Below the pieces are notes generated by a model that was given only the letters and a program-made list of their open reading frames with translations, made no database searches and had not been told where the DNA came from. 6,291 nucleotides of DNA from NCBI GenBank assembly GCA_020432595.1, contig JAGQGA010000334.1, positions 1-6,291 of the forward strand, read 5' to 3'. Shown here piece by piece: positions 2,009 to 6,211 of the stretch (positions are counted from its first letter, which is position 1; each line of letters begins with the position of its first letter). The DNA comes from Anaerolineales bacterium. GTDB lineage: Bacteria; Chloroflexota; Anaerolineae; Promineifilales; Promineifilaceae. The position numbers were made by a program, and so were the translations under genes.

Positions 2009-2077
2009 AGTAATCAGTAATCGGTAATCAGTAATCAGTTGGGGTCACTGATTACCCATCACTGATTACCGATTACC
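2009..2077. repeat. Heptamer repeat cluster with a 16-bp perfect inverted repeat, between ppc and the GDPD gene
   Basis: Four head-to-tail heptamers occupy 2009-2036 (AGTAATC, AGTAATC, GGTAATC, AGTAATC). Three inverted GATTACC units follow at 2050-2056, 2064-2070 and 2071-2077. The arms 2017-2032 and 2061-2076 are perfect 16-nt reverse complements, and a nested 9-bp stem joins 2031-2039 to 2047-2055 around a 7-nt loop. The ppc stop codon (2073-2075) lies inside the right arm, and the GDPD ATG is only 11 nt from the cluster. No T-run follows the stem on either strand, so it does not look like an intrinsic terminator; it could stabilise or process mRNA, or simply be a dispersed repeat. Confidence 0.85.
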
Positions 2078-4868
2078 CTGTATTCTTCAACCCCGACGCA
2101 ATACCATTGATTGTCAGGAAAATAATGCGGAGCAGCGACTGCCCCTCTTCACCCTGCTGCGCTTCTGGCGGCAGCGACCGCAGCCGCGACAGCAAACTCA
2201 CCTGAATAAAATTCAACGGGTCAATATACGGGTTTCGCAACCGCACCGACTGCTGTAGCACCGGGTCATTGTCAAGCAATTCTTGCTGCACCGTCACCCG
2301 CAAAATCCACGCTTCCGTCTCATCAAACGCCGCCTTGATGTGGCCGTACACCTGCTCCCGCACCTGTTCATCCTCCACTAGCTCCGCATAGAGCCTAGCA
2401 ATCCCCATATCGGCTTTCACCAACGATACCTGAGCATTGTCAATGACGGTGCGGAAAAACGGCCATTCGCGGTACATCTCTTGCAGCAGCACCCGCCGCG
2501 CTGGGGTAGAGCCAAACGCCGCCAGCGCATGGCCTACCCCGTACCACCCCGGCAGCACGTAGCGGCTTTGCATCCAGCTGAACCCCCAGGGAATCGCTCG
2601 CAGGCTGCTCAAAATATCGCCGCCCAGCCGCTTCGCCGGCCGTGACCCAATCCGCATCTGGCTAATCTCGTTTAGCGGCGTGGCTTGGCTCCAATATTCC
2701 AGCAGTTCTGGCGTTTCATAAATAAATTGGCGATAGGCATGGTAAGACGTGGCCGCCATTTCTGCCATCGCCTCGCGCCACGCCGGTTTGGGCTGGGGCA
2801 GTTGGCTTTTGTCCGGCGGCATACTTGCCAGCAGTACGGCGTGGATCACCTGCTCCAGATGGCGCTGGGCAATGGCCGGATGGCCGTACCGTTCCCCAAT
2901 CACTTCGCCCTGTTCGGTGATTCGCACCCGGCCGGCAACGGAGCCGGGGGGCTGAGCCAAAATGGCGCGATTGGCCGGTCCGCCACCCCGCGCAATGGTA
3001 CCGCCGCGCCCATGAAACAGCATCATCATCACCTCGTTGGCGCGGCAGCATTCTGCCAACTGTTCCTGCGCCTCGTACAGCTCCCAGTTGGCGGCTAAAT
3101 AGCCTGCGTCCTTGTTGCTGTCCGAGTAGCCAATCATGATCATTTGCTTGCGGCCAACCCGCTCCAGGTGAGGAGCGTAGGCGGGGTGGTGGAAGAGGGT
3201 GGTCATGACGGCCGGGGCTTCGCGCAAGTCGGCGCGGGTTTCAAACAGCGGCACAAAGGTCAACCCCTCAAAATCTTTATCTGGTGCGAGGCACAAATCA
3301 TGCCAATAGGCGAGCAGCAGCGGAGCCAGAATGTCTTCGGGGCCGTGGGTCATGCTGACGATATAGGTTCCCAAAATGTCGGGGCCATAATAAGTTACGC
3401 CGCGCCGCAGCACGTTGAATAAGTCTAGCGTCTCTTTGGTCTCTTTGGAGAGGTCGGTAAGGTGGGTGAAGTCAGGGATGGGTTCGGTGAGCAGTTGGGA
3501 AAGCAAATCGGCGCGTTGAGCGGGGGAAAGTTGGGCAAAGTGGGGAAAACGGCCGTTTTTCCGCAGTAATTCATCCAAAACGGCCGTGTTGTAATCGCTG
3601 TATTGCCGAATATCGAGCCGCGCTACGTGCAGCCCAAACACCTGTGCCTGGTGGCGTAATTTTTCCAAATCGTCGCTAGCAAGCTGCCCCAGCCCTTGCT
3701 CGCGCAGCGTCCGGTCAATCAGGTCAAGTTGGCGGCACAGCGTAGCCCCGCTGCGAAACTGTTTAGGAGGCGGTTCCTGCCCCAACAGCCGCTGCACCAT
3801 CTTGCCATCGGTACGCGCTGTTGCCAAATCTTCGCTAATCATCGCTGCCAGCAGCCGGTAGGGTTCGTTGGGATAGCGGTCGCGCAGGTAAGAGACGTGG
3901 CGCGATTCGACGGCGGCGTTGTGGATAGCTTGCAGCAGTTCTGGCTCAATGTCAACGAGTTGGTCGGAAACGGTGATGGAGCGGTTAAGCTGGCGCAGCA
4001 TCGGCTGGTGGAGCGTTAGCGCCTGGCCGCGATGGAGCCGCAGTGCTTCGGCAGTGACTTTGGCGGTAACATTGGGGTTGCCATCGCGGTCGCCGCCAAT
4101 CCAGGAGCCAAAGGTGAGGAAGCGGCTGGGCAGGGTAAGGTTGGGGTAATATTGCGCCAGGGCGGTCTGCATGGTGGCGTAGATTTTGGGAATGACGTTC
4201 CAAATCGTCTGCTCGAAATAGTACAGGCCGGTTTTGACTTCATCTTCGGGGGTATAAACGGCCGTTCTGCTCCGATTCGTCAGCCACAGCGAAGTAATTT
4301 CCGACCGTACATGGTGCAGCAATTCTGCCCGCTCATCCGGTAGCAAATCGCGCTCCTGTAAATCGGTCAGCATATCGGCCACCCGCCGCAGCTTGGAAAG
4401 CACCGTCCGCCGCTTGGCCTCGGTGGGATGAGCCGTAAAAACCAGCTCAATATCGAGCCGTTCCAACAGGGCGGCCATTTCCGCCTCACCCACGCCCCGC
4501 TCACGCAAGGTGCGAACGCCGGCCGTAATGGATTCACGCAGCGGTCTTGGGTGAGCTTTTCGCGCCCGCTGCCGCAGCACGCGCACCCGCTGCTGGTCTT
4601 CGGCCAGGTTGATTAGCTCAAAATAGACGGTGAAGGCGCGGGCAATGAGTTCGTCGCTGGCGCTGTCCAGGCTGCTGACCAGATGTTTCAGGTCGTCTTC
4701 AAATCGTTCGCCACCCGCCTCCCGCCGTGCTTTGGACAGGTTGCGGATATGTTCTTCTAGCTCAAAAAGCTGCTCTCCGGCCTGTTCCGTAATGACTTCG
4801 CCTAAAATGCCGCCCAGCAAACGAATATCTTGCCGCAGCAGCTCTTGTTCCTCTTCCGCTGATGCCAT
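2073..4868 (-). CDS. ppc: Phosphoenolpyruvate carboxylase
   Basis: This 931-residue enzyme carboxylates phosphoenolpyruvate with bicarbonate to oxaloacetate, replenishing the TCA cycle; it is a cytoplasmic enzyme, tetrameric in the family. Length is normal for bacterial PEPC. Family motifs appear in order: DIRLLGGILGEVI (14-26); FTAHPTEAKRRT (144-155) with catalytic H147; GGDRDGNP (258-265); VARLDIRQ (415-422); PLFETRADL (540-548); IGYSDSNKDAG (579-589); FHGRGGTIARGGGP (618-631); MRIGSRPAKR (738-747); and the terminal NTG (929-931). By alignment with E. coli PEPC, the residues that bind the inhibitor aspartate appear kept as R627, K818, R878 and N929, so feedback inhibition is likely. No plant-type N-terminal phosphorylation motif is seen. 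The start at 4868 is set by AGAGG 7 nt upstream and by the family N-terminus; the frame stays open to 5108, but those 80 extra residues run through intergenic repeats. Palindromes at 3549, 3580 and 4258 are coding. Minus-strand order is ppc, GDPD, DinB-like. Confidence 0.97.
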   Translation of the reverse strand: MASAEEEQELLRQDIRLLGGILGEVITEQAGEQLFELEEHIRNLSKARREAGGERFEDDLKHLVSSLDSASDELIARAFTVYFELINLAEDQQRVRVLRQRARKAHPRPLRESITAGVRTLRERGVGEAEMAALLERLDIELVFTAHPTEAKRRTVLSKLRRVADMLTDLQERDLLPDERAELLHHVRSEITSLWLTNRSRTAVYTPEDEVKTGLYYFEQTIWNVIPKIYATMQTALAQYYPNLTLPSRFLTFGSWIGGDRDGNPNVTAKVTAEALRLHRGQALTLHQPMLRQLNRSITVSDQLVDIEPELLQAIHNAAVESRHVSYLRDRYPNEPYRLLAAMISEDLATARTDGKMVQRLLGQEPPPKQFRSGATLCRQLDLIDRTLREQGLGQLASDDLEKLRHQAQVFGLHVARLDIRQYSDYNTAVLDELLRKNGRFPHFAQLSPAQRADLLSQLLTEPIPDFTHLTDLSKETKETLDLFNVLRRGVTYYGPDILGTYIVSMTHGPEDILAPLLLAYWHDLCLAPDKDFEGLTFVPLFETRADLREAPAVMTTLFHHPAYAPHLERVGRKQMIMIGYSDSNKDAGYLAANWELYEAQEQLAECCRANEVMMMLFHGRGGTIARGGGPANRAILAQPPGSVAGRVRITEQGEVIGERYGHPAIAQRHLEQVIHAVLLASMPPDKSQLPQPKPAWREAMAEMAATSYHAYRQFIYETPELLEYWSQATPLNEISQMRIGSRPAKRLGGDILSSLRAIPWGFSWMQSRYVLPGWYGVGHALAAFGSTPARRVLLQEMYREWPFFRTVIDNAQVSLVKADMGIARLYAELVEDEQVREQVYGHIKAAFDETEAWILRVTVQQELLDNDPVLQQSVRLRNPYIDPLNFIQVSLLSRLRSLPPEAQQGEEGQSLLRIIFLTINGIASGLKNTG

Positions 4869-4926: not shown

Positions 4927-5031
4927 GAGGAAAACGGCCGTTTTTGGACACGGAAGGACACGGAAGGACACGGAAAATGAACCTGTATCCTTCTATGTAT
5001 GGTAAAATTTTTTGAGGAAAACGGCCGTTTT
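4927..5031. repeat. Pair of 18-nt direct repeats, each containing a 14-bp palindrome
   Basis: GAGGAAAACGGCCGTTTT occurs at 4927-4944 and again at 5014-5031. The last 14 bases of each copy form a perfect palindrome (AAAACGGCCGTTTT). The pair brackets the 10-mer array. The right copy lies just before the sequence where Rhs similarity begins (about 5035), so it may mark the edge of the rearrangement that truncated the Rhs gene. Confidence 0.8.
4946..4975. repeat. Three perfect tandem copies of a 10-mer
   Basis: GGACACGGAA is repeated exactly three times without gaps. The array starts 2 nt after the 4931-4944 palindrome and lies in the ppc 5' region, about 80 to 110 nt upstream of its start codon. 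A 10-bp period is close to one DNA helical turn, so a protein bound to each copy would lie on the same face; this is an inference, and slippage-generated sequence without function is equally possible. Confidence 0.85.
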
Positions 5032-5139
5032 CTTAAAGGTGGGGAAGCCGTAGCGGTGCGGGTGGTGGCGTTGAGCAGGAGTGGGTTGGAGGTGGAGATC
5101 ATTGGCACGACGGGGCTGTTTTATATTCACGGCGACCAT
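4999..5139 (+). pseudogene. 5' piece of a split Rhs core domain, out of frame with the remainder
   Basis: In this frame the sequence reads GGEAVAVRVVALSRSGLEVE, then IIGTTGLFYIHGDH, ending at 5139. The tail is the well-known YxHGDHLGS segment of Rhs/YD-repeat proteins that leads into the core domain. The next expected residues, LGSSTTLTDPSG, occur in another frame from 5162. Nothing upstream resembles YD repeats, and a TGA at 4978-4980 closes the frame, so the thousands of bases that normally precede the core are absent. The ATG at 4999 is only the first available codon; there is no clear ribosome binding site. Rhs similarity seems to begin around 5035, directly after a palindrome copy. Confidence 0.7.
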
Positions 5140-6211
5140 CCCCGCTTTTGCGGGGACAAGCTTGGGCAGCAGCACGACGTTGACAGACCCAAGTGGTGGG
5201 TTGGTGGATGACATTGTGCGGTATGCGCCGTTTGGCGAAGTGCGGGGCGGGGCATTGCCAACAAACATTACCGACCGGGGTTTTACCGGGCACAAACACA
5301 ATGCCGAAATTGGGCTTATCTATATGAATGCCCGTTTTTATGACCCAAACACGAACCGAATGCTCACTCCTGACTCCATTGTACCCGATCCAACAAATCC
5401 GCAAAGCCTGAATCGCTATAGCTATACGCGGAATAATCCCATAAATAGGATTGATCCAACAGGTCATATAGATTGCAATATTTTGGGTACAGAAGAGTGC
5501 AATCCAGAAAATCCTGAGCAATATATAGACTCCTCATCTTTTCCATCATTGCCACCCCTTCCGGCGGCGGTGGATATTATTAATGAATGGCATAGATTGG
5601 GAATCATTAATGACCCAAGCCGAACTGATATTTTGAGGGTACCCATTATGAGCAATGACATGCTACTTGGATGGACATATGTCATGCCAGTAGGAAGCCA
5701 ACAATCATATGTTTCGGAAAACTCAATACAATATCAGTTCGGGAGGGGTTTGGCACAACTTGGCATAGGGCTAGATATGCTTGAATTGATGCTTACCGGT
5801 TCGCCAGACCCCGGTGCTGGAGGTGCTTTAGGTTTTGTAGATGCAGGTGTTACGTATGCCTCTGGCTTGCTGACAGGTGATAATTATGGTTTGTATCAAC
5901 ATCCTGACTTACCTCAGATGGTCGCGGTTAACCAAGATTTGTTAGTCAATGCAGGTGAAGCAATTATTGGCGGAACTGCTCCCTACCTTTTTGCTGCATT
6001 GGGTGCTGCATCAACTGTTGAAACTGGACCTGCTGGCATGGCAATTGGTGGAGGGACTGGTTTCATGCTGGGAAAAATGACAGATGCTGTTACCTCTACT
6101 GCGTCTGCTCTTTATGATGGTGGCAGATATAATGGTTCTATTTATAACCACCTAATGATCGGAGGCTCACAAGAGGGGATAGTTATAATATGGTGGCCAT
6201 CAGGCTCGTAA
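5081..6211 (+). CDS. Rhs/YD-repeat core domain with unique C-terminal tip, 5'-truncated remnant
   Basis: Numbered from a GTG at 5081 (376 aa), residues 28-129 are a classic RHS repeat-associated core: LGSSTTLTDPSGG, VRYAPFGEV, FTGHKHNAEIGLIYMNARFYDP, RMLTPDSI, LNRYSYTRNNPINRIDPTGH. The PxxxxDPxG motif (P120, D125, P126, G128) marks the core/tip boundary, where Rhs proteins are cleaved. In intact systems the YD repeats form a shell around a toxic tip that is released by secretion or contact. The tip here (130-376) matches no toxin I recognise; it has Gly/Ala-rich hydrophobic stretches (about 245-265 and 292-332) and ends in IVIIWWPSGS, so a membrane-active or pre-toxin role is possible but unproven. 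The repeats are missing, and residues 1-27 are an out-of-frame reading of the sequence before and through the inserted hairpin, so the true start is uncertain and the gene is probably a pseudogene or orphan tip cassette. From about 5280 the sequence is much more AT-rich. Confidence 0.8.
   Translation: MGWRWRSLARRGCFIFTATIPAFAGTSLGSSTTLTDPSGGLVDDIVRYAPFGEVRGGALPTNITDRGFTGHKHNAEIGLIYMNARFYDPNTNRMLTPDSIVPDPTNPQSLNRYSYTRNNPINRIDPTGHIDCNILGTEECNPENPEQYIDSSSFPSLPPLPAAVDIINEWHRLGIINDPSRTDILRVPIMSNDMLLGWTYVMPVGSQQSYVSENSIQYQFGRGLAQLGIGLDMLELMLTGSPDPGAGGALGFVDAGVTYASGLLTGDNYGLYQHPDLPQMVAVNQDLLVNAGEAIIGGTAPYLFAALGAASTVETGPAGMAIGGGTGFMLGKMTDAVTSTASALYDGGRYNGSIYNHLMIGGSQEGIVIIWWPSGS
5140..5161. repeat. 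22-nt REP-like hairpin inserted in the Rhs core
   Basis: CCCCGC-TTTT-GCGGGG (5140-5155) forms a 6-bp GC stem with a four-T loop, extendable by one T-A pair (5139/5156), followed by ACAAGC. It lies exactly between the codons for GDH (ending at 5139) and LGSS (starting at 5162). Removing 22 nt (one more than a multiple of three) restores an uninterrupted Rhs core. There is no T-run after the stem, so it is not an intrinsic terminator. Small dispersed palindromes of this CCATCCCCGC type are common in bacterial genomes. Confidence 0.7.

What the first reader, a model, noticed from the sequence alone, without database searches (positions are those of the whole stretch)
5131..5170. A 22-nt hairpin splits an Rhs core exactly between GDH and LGSS
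The frame ending at 5139 reads GLFYIHGDH and the frame starting at 5162 reads LGSSTTLTDPSGG. Joined, these give the canonical Rhs sequence YIHGDHLGSSTTLTDPSGG with no residue missing. The intervening 5140-5161 is a compact palindrome (CCCCGC-TTTT-GCGGGG plus ACAAGC). This looks like a very recent, precise insertion of a REP-like element causing a frameshift, with little other decay in the core. A less likely alternative is a recoding signal such as ribosomal bypassing or frameshifting. No obvious target-site duplication is visible.
Basis: partly seen in the sequence, partly recalled or inferred. Interest (0 to 1): 0.7.

Follow-up and report, generated by a model that had tools for sequence, protein, structure and literature searches.

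The report
Mobile DNA hairpin inside Rhs gene
A 22-letter mobile DNA hairpin has landed in a broken leftover of an Rhs gene, and related hairpins sit at the same point of Rhs genes in several related bacteria, which shows how very small repeats spread but does not point to a new way of reading genes.

Summary
At 5139-5161 a hairpin with tail ACAAGC separates two in-register pieces of an Rhs core. The gene is also 5'-truncated next to ppc, so this is not a sound gene with one lesion.

Related modules (stem-loop plus CARGY tail, 22-24 nt) sit at the same GDH|LGS junction in six other genomes of the class and as 8-residue in-frame inserts in 11 of 132 proteins collected. Inserted and empty Rhs cores are intermixed on a tree: 11 changes, single clade rejected. 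Such modules are dispersed repeats: 38 and 57 copies in two genomes, control 0. Some type-1 copies lie inside the loop of larger REP-like hairpins.

Of seven 22/23-nt inserts, six have the upstream frame closed within 10-75 codons and one reaches the contig end; 24-nt inserts, all in one genome, have 212 open codons. That fits a mobile palindrome filtered by selection better than recoding.

Best reading: a REP-like element whose tail matches neither the GTAG nor the CGTC tag, inserted repeatedly at a permissive site. The mobilising enzyme is unknown, and the window's own genome is not held.

The parts
5139..5161 (+). hairpin module: stem TCCCCGC/GCGGGGA, loop TTTT, tail CAAGC; 22 nt, ends uncertain by one base (5139-5160 or 5140-5161)
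   Evidence: comparison with modules
5140..5145 (+). left stem arm CCCCGC
5150..5155 (+). right stem arm GCGGGG
5156..5161 (+). tail ACAAGC (ACARGY or GCARGY in other copies)
5047..5139 (+). short remnant of the upstream Rhs core, ending ...GLFYIHGDH
   Evidence: by-eye resemblance to the VAVRV...GLFYLxSDH stretch of P0006 and P0007. The piece alone has no Pfam match, and its 4999-5139 extension has no Rhs match in NCBIfam
5162..6211 (+). downstream Rhs core and C-terminal tip, 349 codons and stop
   Evidence: open for 349 codons; TIGR03696 at residues 21-102; relatives P0002-P0004
5222..5467 (+). Rhs_assc_core domain (TIGR03696, 71.7 bits against cut-off 32.5)
5081..5099 (+). direct repeat with 5196-5214; the relative P0005, judged from its protein, lacks the stretch between them, junction included
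5196..5214 (+). second copy of the direct repeat
2073..4868 (-). phosphoenolpyruvate carboxylase gene, the neighbour beside the truncated Rhs piece
   Evidence: PF00311, E 1.6e-301

Best explanation
The 22 nt are one copy of a small dispersed palindromic repeat: a stem-loop plus a conserved CARGY tail on one strand. It inserted without a visible target duplication at the GDH|LGS codon boundary of a 5'-truncated Rhs cassette in an uncultured Chloroflexota bacterium. Modules of the same design have entered this boundary several times in different Rhs genes. Shown by data: same-site modules in different genomes, dispersion in related genomes, stem covariation, a scattered tree, and a longer upstream frame where the insert is 24 nt. 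Inferred: that this window's own genome holds further copies; that the junction is favoured because its DNA (GACCAY before YTGGG) resembles the usual surroundings of the repeat and because an 8-residue insert is tolerated there; and that a single-strand (HUH, IS200/IS605-like) transposase moves the module in trans. The module most likely has no role in translation.
For: Same-junction modules: G027 23 nt and G381 22 nt, G011 23 nt, G035 24 nt in several Rhs copies, G010 two of 23 nt, G302 22 nt (L145). Protein level: 8-residue inserts exactly between DH and LGS in 8 of the 120 proteins listed, and in 3 of 12 new proteins from a search aimed at the insert. Tree: 16 inserted and 67 uninserted cores need 11 changes, at least 7 forced by starred branches; one clade rejected, p-AU 4.9e-46. 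Dispersion: at up to 3 mismatches 38 matches in G010 and 57 in G011, control 0; type 1 at up to 1 mismatch in G334 19 against control 1, G327 10 against 0, G257 8 against 0, G302 7 against 0 (a few hairpins there are counted on both strands). In 42 type-2 stem-loops chosen without regard to the tail, 34 carry RCARG, control 0; outer stem pairs covary (2 and 0 of 20000 shuffles reach the observed values; without array copies, n 33, 5 and 0). Frames: of seven 22/23-nt inserts, six have the GDH frame closed after 10-75 codons and the seventh reaches the contig end at 61; five 24-nt inserts of G035 have 212 open codons upstream.
Against: No transposase could be linked to the module: none of 12 Y1_Tnp loci (1.7-3.3 kb each, four genomes) holds a convincing copy (one 3-mismatch match), and G381 has no Y1_Tnp match at E 0.001. 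The window's own genome is not held. The 25-mer CAT+module at 3 mismatches was in 0 of 5 and 0 of 56 relatives. In 404 kb of G035 the only copies are in Rhs genes, so there the module spread with the gene, and the five 24-nt cases are not independent. The tail is less general for type 1: of 48 type-1 stem-loop rows chosen without regard to the tail, 17 have it on the strand read, 13 look CGTC-like, 11 have ATGT and 7 neither, and the reversed control gave 18. In one search, control hits occur in 29 of the 396 genomes at 1-2 each (my count of the rows), so single matches there are at chance level. G027 and G381 were found through the module itself and G010, G302 and three proteins by site-aimed searches, so the hot spot is overstated to an unknown degree. 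Two of seven uninserted loci also close early, after 9 and 112 codons. The type-2 stem is weak by energy (z 0.2 and 0.6).
Confidence: 0.83

Rival explanations
1. Recoding signal: the ribosome bypasses or frameshifts over the hairpin and makes one continuous Rhs protein, as for byps of yeast mitochondria or phage T4 gene 60 (both recalled).
For: Both flanks are in register and the downstream frame stays open for 349 codons. A hairpin near the take-off point is a known bypass feature (recalled).
Against: Insert lengths 22, 23 and 24 need different shifts. Such modules also occur in tandem arrays, simple repeats and larger hairpins. The upstream frame is only 52 codons long here and closed within 75 codons in five of the other six frame-breaking cases; in the sixth the contig ends.
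Confidence: 0.03
2. One ancestral insertion, inherited or passed on by recombination between Rhs genes, with the hairpin diverging later.
For: The Rhs-borne modules share the tail. G035 paralogues look like descendants of one insertion.
Against: Two unlike stems (type 1, type 2) occur at the site. Inserted rows are scattered and one clade is rejected. Such modules also lie at many other places in the genomes. Recombination limited to the junction cannot be excluded.
Confidence: 0.1
3. A DNA site with a function in Rhs evolution, such as a recombination or pause point that helps exchange of C-terminal tips.
For: Lies in truncated cassettes. The same truncated start occurs with a different tip in P0005.
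Against: 58 of 66 proteins with a readable junction and core end are empty there. The modules are common outside Rhs in G010 and G011.
Confidence: 0.04
4. Assembly or sequencing artefact.
For: A single metagenome contig whose reads cannot be inspected here.
Against: Related modules at the same site in six other genomes.
Confidence: 0.02

Closest known systems
CGTC-tagged REPs, incl. Neisseria dRS3 and Rickettsia RPE-4/RPE-6 (PMC3733652, passages seen)
   Same: Short palindrome, 4-5 nt loop, dispersed, sometimes inside genes and translated, no dedicated transposase known. The paper also tells of different REPs at about the same site of recB in two Xanthomonas species, a precedent for same-site insertion. 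GTCAT...CCCCGC forms that look like this family occur in the same genomes, though the paper lists CGTC repeats in five phyla without Chloroflexi.
   Different: No CGTC motif and no CCA tail here; stem 7 bp against 8-9 bp; tail is CARGY. In 13 of 38 type-1 rows the module lies inside an outer stem of 8 bp or more, 9 of them with ATTCCCGC on the left (no shuffled control was run for these stems).
GTAG-tagged REPs with RAYT/TnpAREP (PMC3733652, PMC8266576, passages seen)
   Same: Hairpin with a conserved motif at one end; reported from Chloroflexi too. E. coli TnpAREP cleaves at CT beside its REP; here CT lies within 3 nt of the tail's last base in 26 of 34 A-tail copies (background 27 of 58 four-base stretches).
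   Different: No GTAG. No convincing copy beside 12 Y1 transposase loci.
RPE-1 of Rickettsia (mentioned in PMC3733652, passages; details recalled)
   Same: Palindromic element inserted in protein genes.
   Different: RPE-1 is longer; here 22-24 nt, and the site in Rhs recurs.
Mobile bypassing elements (byps) of Magnusiomyces mitochondria (recalled)
   Same: Short hairpin inside a coding region.
   Different: No sign that translation skips it.

Membership tests
Rhs/YD core protein | Rhs_assc_core domain | tested here: met
   TIGR03696, E 5e-20, over cut-off, downstream piece only
Rhs/YD core protein | long YD-repeat core upstream (feature recalled) | tested here: not met
   upstream frame open for 52 codons only; ppc starts at 4868 on the other strand
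CGTC REP | CGTC (or TGTC, CCTC) unpaired tag at one end | tested here: not met
   Read on the other strand the tail gives TGTC, but its C is the first stem base, and other copies give TGTG or TGTA
CGTC REP | 4-5 nt loop, 8-9 bp stem | tested here: inconclusive
   loop of 4 met; stem 6-7 bp
CGTC REP | short unpaired CCA-like tail | tested here: not met
GTAG REP | terminal GTAG | tested here: not met
REP in the broad sense | 20-40 bp palindrome dispersed in many copies | tested here: met
   for related modules in G010, G011 and G334, G327, G257, G302
REP in the broad sense | many copies in the same genome as the window | not testable with these tools
   no whole genome held; one copy in 6.3 kb
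REPtron (RAYT-borne REP) | copies flanking a Y1 transposase gene | tested here: not met
   12 Y1_Tnp loci in G010, G011, G035, G027; one weak 3-mismatch match near one of them. Not tested in the window's genome
Translational bypass element | frame conserved by one insert length and a long upstream frame | tested here: not met
Translational bypass element | spanning protein product | not testable with these tools
   needs proteomics

The most novel reading that the evidence does not exclude
A superfamily of CARGY-tagged minipalindromes, distinct from GTAG and CGTC REPs, inserts into the loops of other REPs and repeatedly into one codon boundary of Rhs genes. Its insertion would be guided by pairing between the target base and the first tail base: T before the stem base in 32 of 34 A-tail copies, C in 21 of 22 G-tail copies, and CAT with ACARG or CAC with GCARG at all eight Rhs sites compared (window, G027, G381, G302, G011, G035 and two of G010). 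The same pairing is equally explained if that base belongs to the module's stem. If the guided reading holds, this is an uncharacterised single-strand transposition system.
Probability: 0.25. Interest if true: 0.62.

Novelty: new variant of a known kind. Interest (0 to 1): 0.42.

Why it matters
A site where unlike minipalindromes keep landing, in frame in longer genes and out of frame in remnants, gives natural replicates for how such repeats choose targets and how selection filters them. It also warns annotators: 8-residue peptides such as ASALLSTG or PSASSGQA between DH and LGS are very likely translated repeats (inferred for those seen only as protein), and frameshifts at that point need not be sequencing errors or recoding. 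An exact-text search of open-access papers for four forms of the type-2 repeat found none, which says little, since sequences are rarely printed as text.

Tried and rejected
Rfam: no family at gathering score in the window. The 25-mer at up to 3 mismatches: 0 of 5 and 0 of 56 genomes. A 22-mer with free loop at 3 mismatches gave 78 matches against 99 for its reversed control over 9 genomes (my sums), so dispersion was judged from calls with low or zero controls. GAYCAY-anchored type-1 search: 18 of 396 genomes; the two 0-mismatch places (G381, G302) are Rhs junctions, the 18 listed 2-mismatch places were not examined one by one. The first tree was discarded because the window row was cut to 12% of the columns and P0008 was wrongly scored as inserted; one search corrects both. 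In one search, loci with a stop before the core end or without a core end in range were skipped (the inserted L145, L191/L203 and one G035 copy among them), identical downstream rows were entered once, and P0041, P0122 and P0128 did not enter. The alignment of insert sites shows 8-residue module-like inserts only at DH|LGS among 113 cores (5 rows), but one G011 Rhs region has in-frame copies at another site, FLP|FGG (L269, L270). Plasmid search: 558 records with a match, none covering 80% of the query; 10 listed. Papers: PMC3733652 and PMC8266576, passages only; all others, search listings only. Searches for Rhs with REP (3 papers) and Anaerolineae with palindromic repeats (7 papers, 6 listed) showed nothing of this kind by title or abstract start.

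Full report
What is there. The window is a 6.3-kb contig of an uncultured Chloroflexota bacterium. Its phosphoenolpyruvate carboxylase is closest to an Anaerolineae MAG, at 59% identity in the best segment, and no genome is held for it. Right of ppc lies a short piece of Rhs core ending ...GLFYIHGDH at 5139, then the hairpin module, then an open frame from 5162 to 6211 with the Rhs_assc_core domain and a tip of unknown function. The hairpin is the only perfect one of its kind in the window and folds better than 200 of 200 shuffles.

The Rhs gene is not otherwise whole. The upstream frame is open for 52 codons, of which about 31 resemble Rhs by eye, and it abuts a stretch with the palindrome AAAACGGCCGTTTT next to ppc. 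A protein of an Ardenticatenaceae MAG, P0005, begins with the same 26 residues as the window's frame at 4999, shares the core, has another tip, and, judged from the protein alone, lacks the stretch between two direct repeats that contains the junction. So this truncated cassette exists with different tips in related genomes.

The same junction is hit elsewhere. Two Rhs loci with a module at exactly DH|LGS were found through the module itself: G027 (23 nt) and G381 (22 nt). G011 (23 nt) and G035 (24 nt) were found through the downstream core, that is, without bias towards the module; the junctions listed are ten empty ones, three inserted ones from G011 and G035, the two found through the module, and one 37-nt and one 70-nt or chance pattern match of no meaning appeared. 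Site-anchored patterns added G010 twice (23 nt) and G302 (22 nt). At protein level, 8 of 120 listed relatives carry eight extra residues at that point: HSASSGQA, PSASSGQA, ASALLSTS twice, ASALLSTG twice, PSAMLRTS and ASTLLSTG; many of the 120 start after the junction and say nothing. Three of 12 new proteins from a search aimed at the insert have it too. Among 66 proteins with a readable junction and core end, 8 have the insert and 58 are empty.

Independent events. On a tree of the downstream core alone (83 rows), 16 inserted rows need 11 changes, at least 7 forced by starred branches. Holding them together is rejected (p-AU 4.9e-46). The tree has few columns (103), and Rhs genes recombine (recalled), so the count is approximate. 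Two unlike stems also occur: type 1 (CCCCGC-N4-GCGGGG) and type 2 (N-CTTCG-RCANG-CTCAG-N').

The modules are dispersed repeats. Type 2, up to 3 mismatches: 38 matches in G010 and 57 in G011, reversed control 0, some in tandem arrays of 21-22 bp. Type 1, up to 1 mismatch: 42 of 396 genomes have a match, with 19, 10, 8, 7, 5, 5 and 5 in G334, G327, G257, G302, G361, G250 and G023, where controls are 1, 0, 0, 0, 0, 0 and 0 (a few hairpins are counted on both strands). By my count of the rows, control hits occur in 29 genomes at 1-2 each, so the many single matches are at chance level. In a set chosen without reference to the tail, 34 of 42 type-2 copies have RCARG after the stem, and the two outer stem positions covary. 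For type 1 the same kind of search gave 48 rows against 18 control hits, of which 17 rows have the tail on the strand read, 13 look CGTC-like, 11 have ATGT and 7 neither; the end letters of that pattern excluded part of the copies. The type-1 tail is therefore one form among several of this hairpin.

Type-1 copies often lie inside an outer stem: 13 of 38 rows have one of 8 bp or more, 9 of these with ATTCCCGC on the left (no shuffled control, and L316 repeats the place of L139). In six of the 13 the bases left and right of the module add up to 4, the loop length given for CGTC-1 REPs in PMC3733652. There the module looks like a guest in another REP.

Target. Of 58 type-2 copies outside arrays, Rhs and one larger repeat, 34 have an A-tail, 22 a G-tail and 2 neither. 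In A-tail copies 27 of 34 have AT before the stem base and 32 of 34 have T; CT follows within 3 nt in 26 of 34 (background 27 of 58). Of the G-tail copies 1 of 22 has T there and 21 have C. Many A-tail copies lie in CCAAT/CTCCC simple repeats, so the apparent target is partly that context. Rhs DNA at the junction reads GACCAY or GATCAC before YTGGG, which fits. The pairing of the base before the stem with the first tail base means that the module's ends are uncertain by one base.

Reading frames. For the seven 22/23-nt inserts the GDH frame closes after 10, 21, 23, 28, 52 and 75 codons, or reaches the contig end after 61. Five of these seven keep 220-349 open codons downstream; the other two have 40 and 69. 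Five 24-nt inserts, paralogues in G035, have 212 open codons upstream. Of seven uninserted loci, five are open to the locus end (429-1680 codons) and two close after 9 and 112. The 8-residue inserts in the protein database lie in continuous frames, as any listed protein must. A frame-breaking module is thus seen in remnants, as far as the contigs tell, and an in-frame one in longer frames. This needs no recoding.

Mechanism. Shown: palindrome, conserved tail in type 2, dispersion, repeated use of one site, no evident duplication. Inferred: movement by a single-strand transposase acting in trans. E. coli TnpAREP cuts at CT beside its REP (PMC8266576, passages), which resembles the CT beside the tail. 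However, none of 12 Y1_Tnp loci had a convincing copy nearby, and G381 has no Y1_Tnp match at E 0.001. PMC3733652 likewise reports no dedicated transposase for CGTC REPs, and tells of REPs at about the same site of recB in two Xanthomonas species, a precedent for same-site insertion.

Verdict. The details differ: the Rhs gene is a truncated remnant, the module belongs to a group with a CARGY tail, and the site is used repeatedly in related bacteria.

Noticed in passing
window 106, 1182, 1678, 3549, 3580, 4258, 4934, 5021: ACGGCCGT occurs 8 times against 0.14 expected; ACGGCCGTTTCC is the commonest 12-mer in 404 kb of relative G035, 133 copies. A highly iterated palindrome of this lineage; one text search (Chloroflexi with 'highly iterated palindrome') found no paper.
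   Followed up: partly
window 5162-6211: The piece after the junction has no Pfam match; relatives P0002-P0004 match at 44-83% identity over most of it, and P0005 has the same cassette start with another tip.
   Followed up: partly
window 2010-2076: Imperfect inverted repeat built of GTAATCAGTAATC-like units between the GDPD and ppc genes.
   Followed up: no
window 4946-4975: Three head-to-tail copies of GGACACGGAA upstream of ppc (by eye).
   Followed up: no
L269 and L270 (G011:C532): Rhs region with the type-2 module in frame at a second site, FLP|FGG, adding eight residues, while the DH|LGS junction in L270 is empty.
   Followed up: partly
L208 (G011:C31:16-213), L227 (G010:C21): Tandem arrays of the type-2 module with period 22 and 21 bp.
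   Followed up: no
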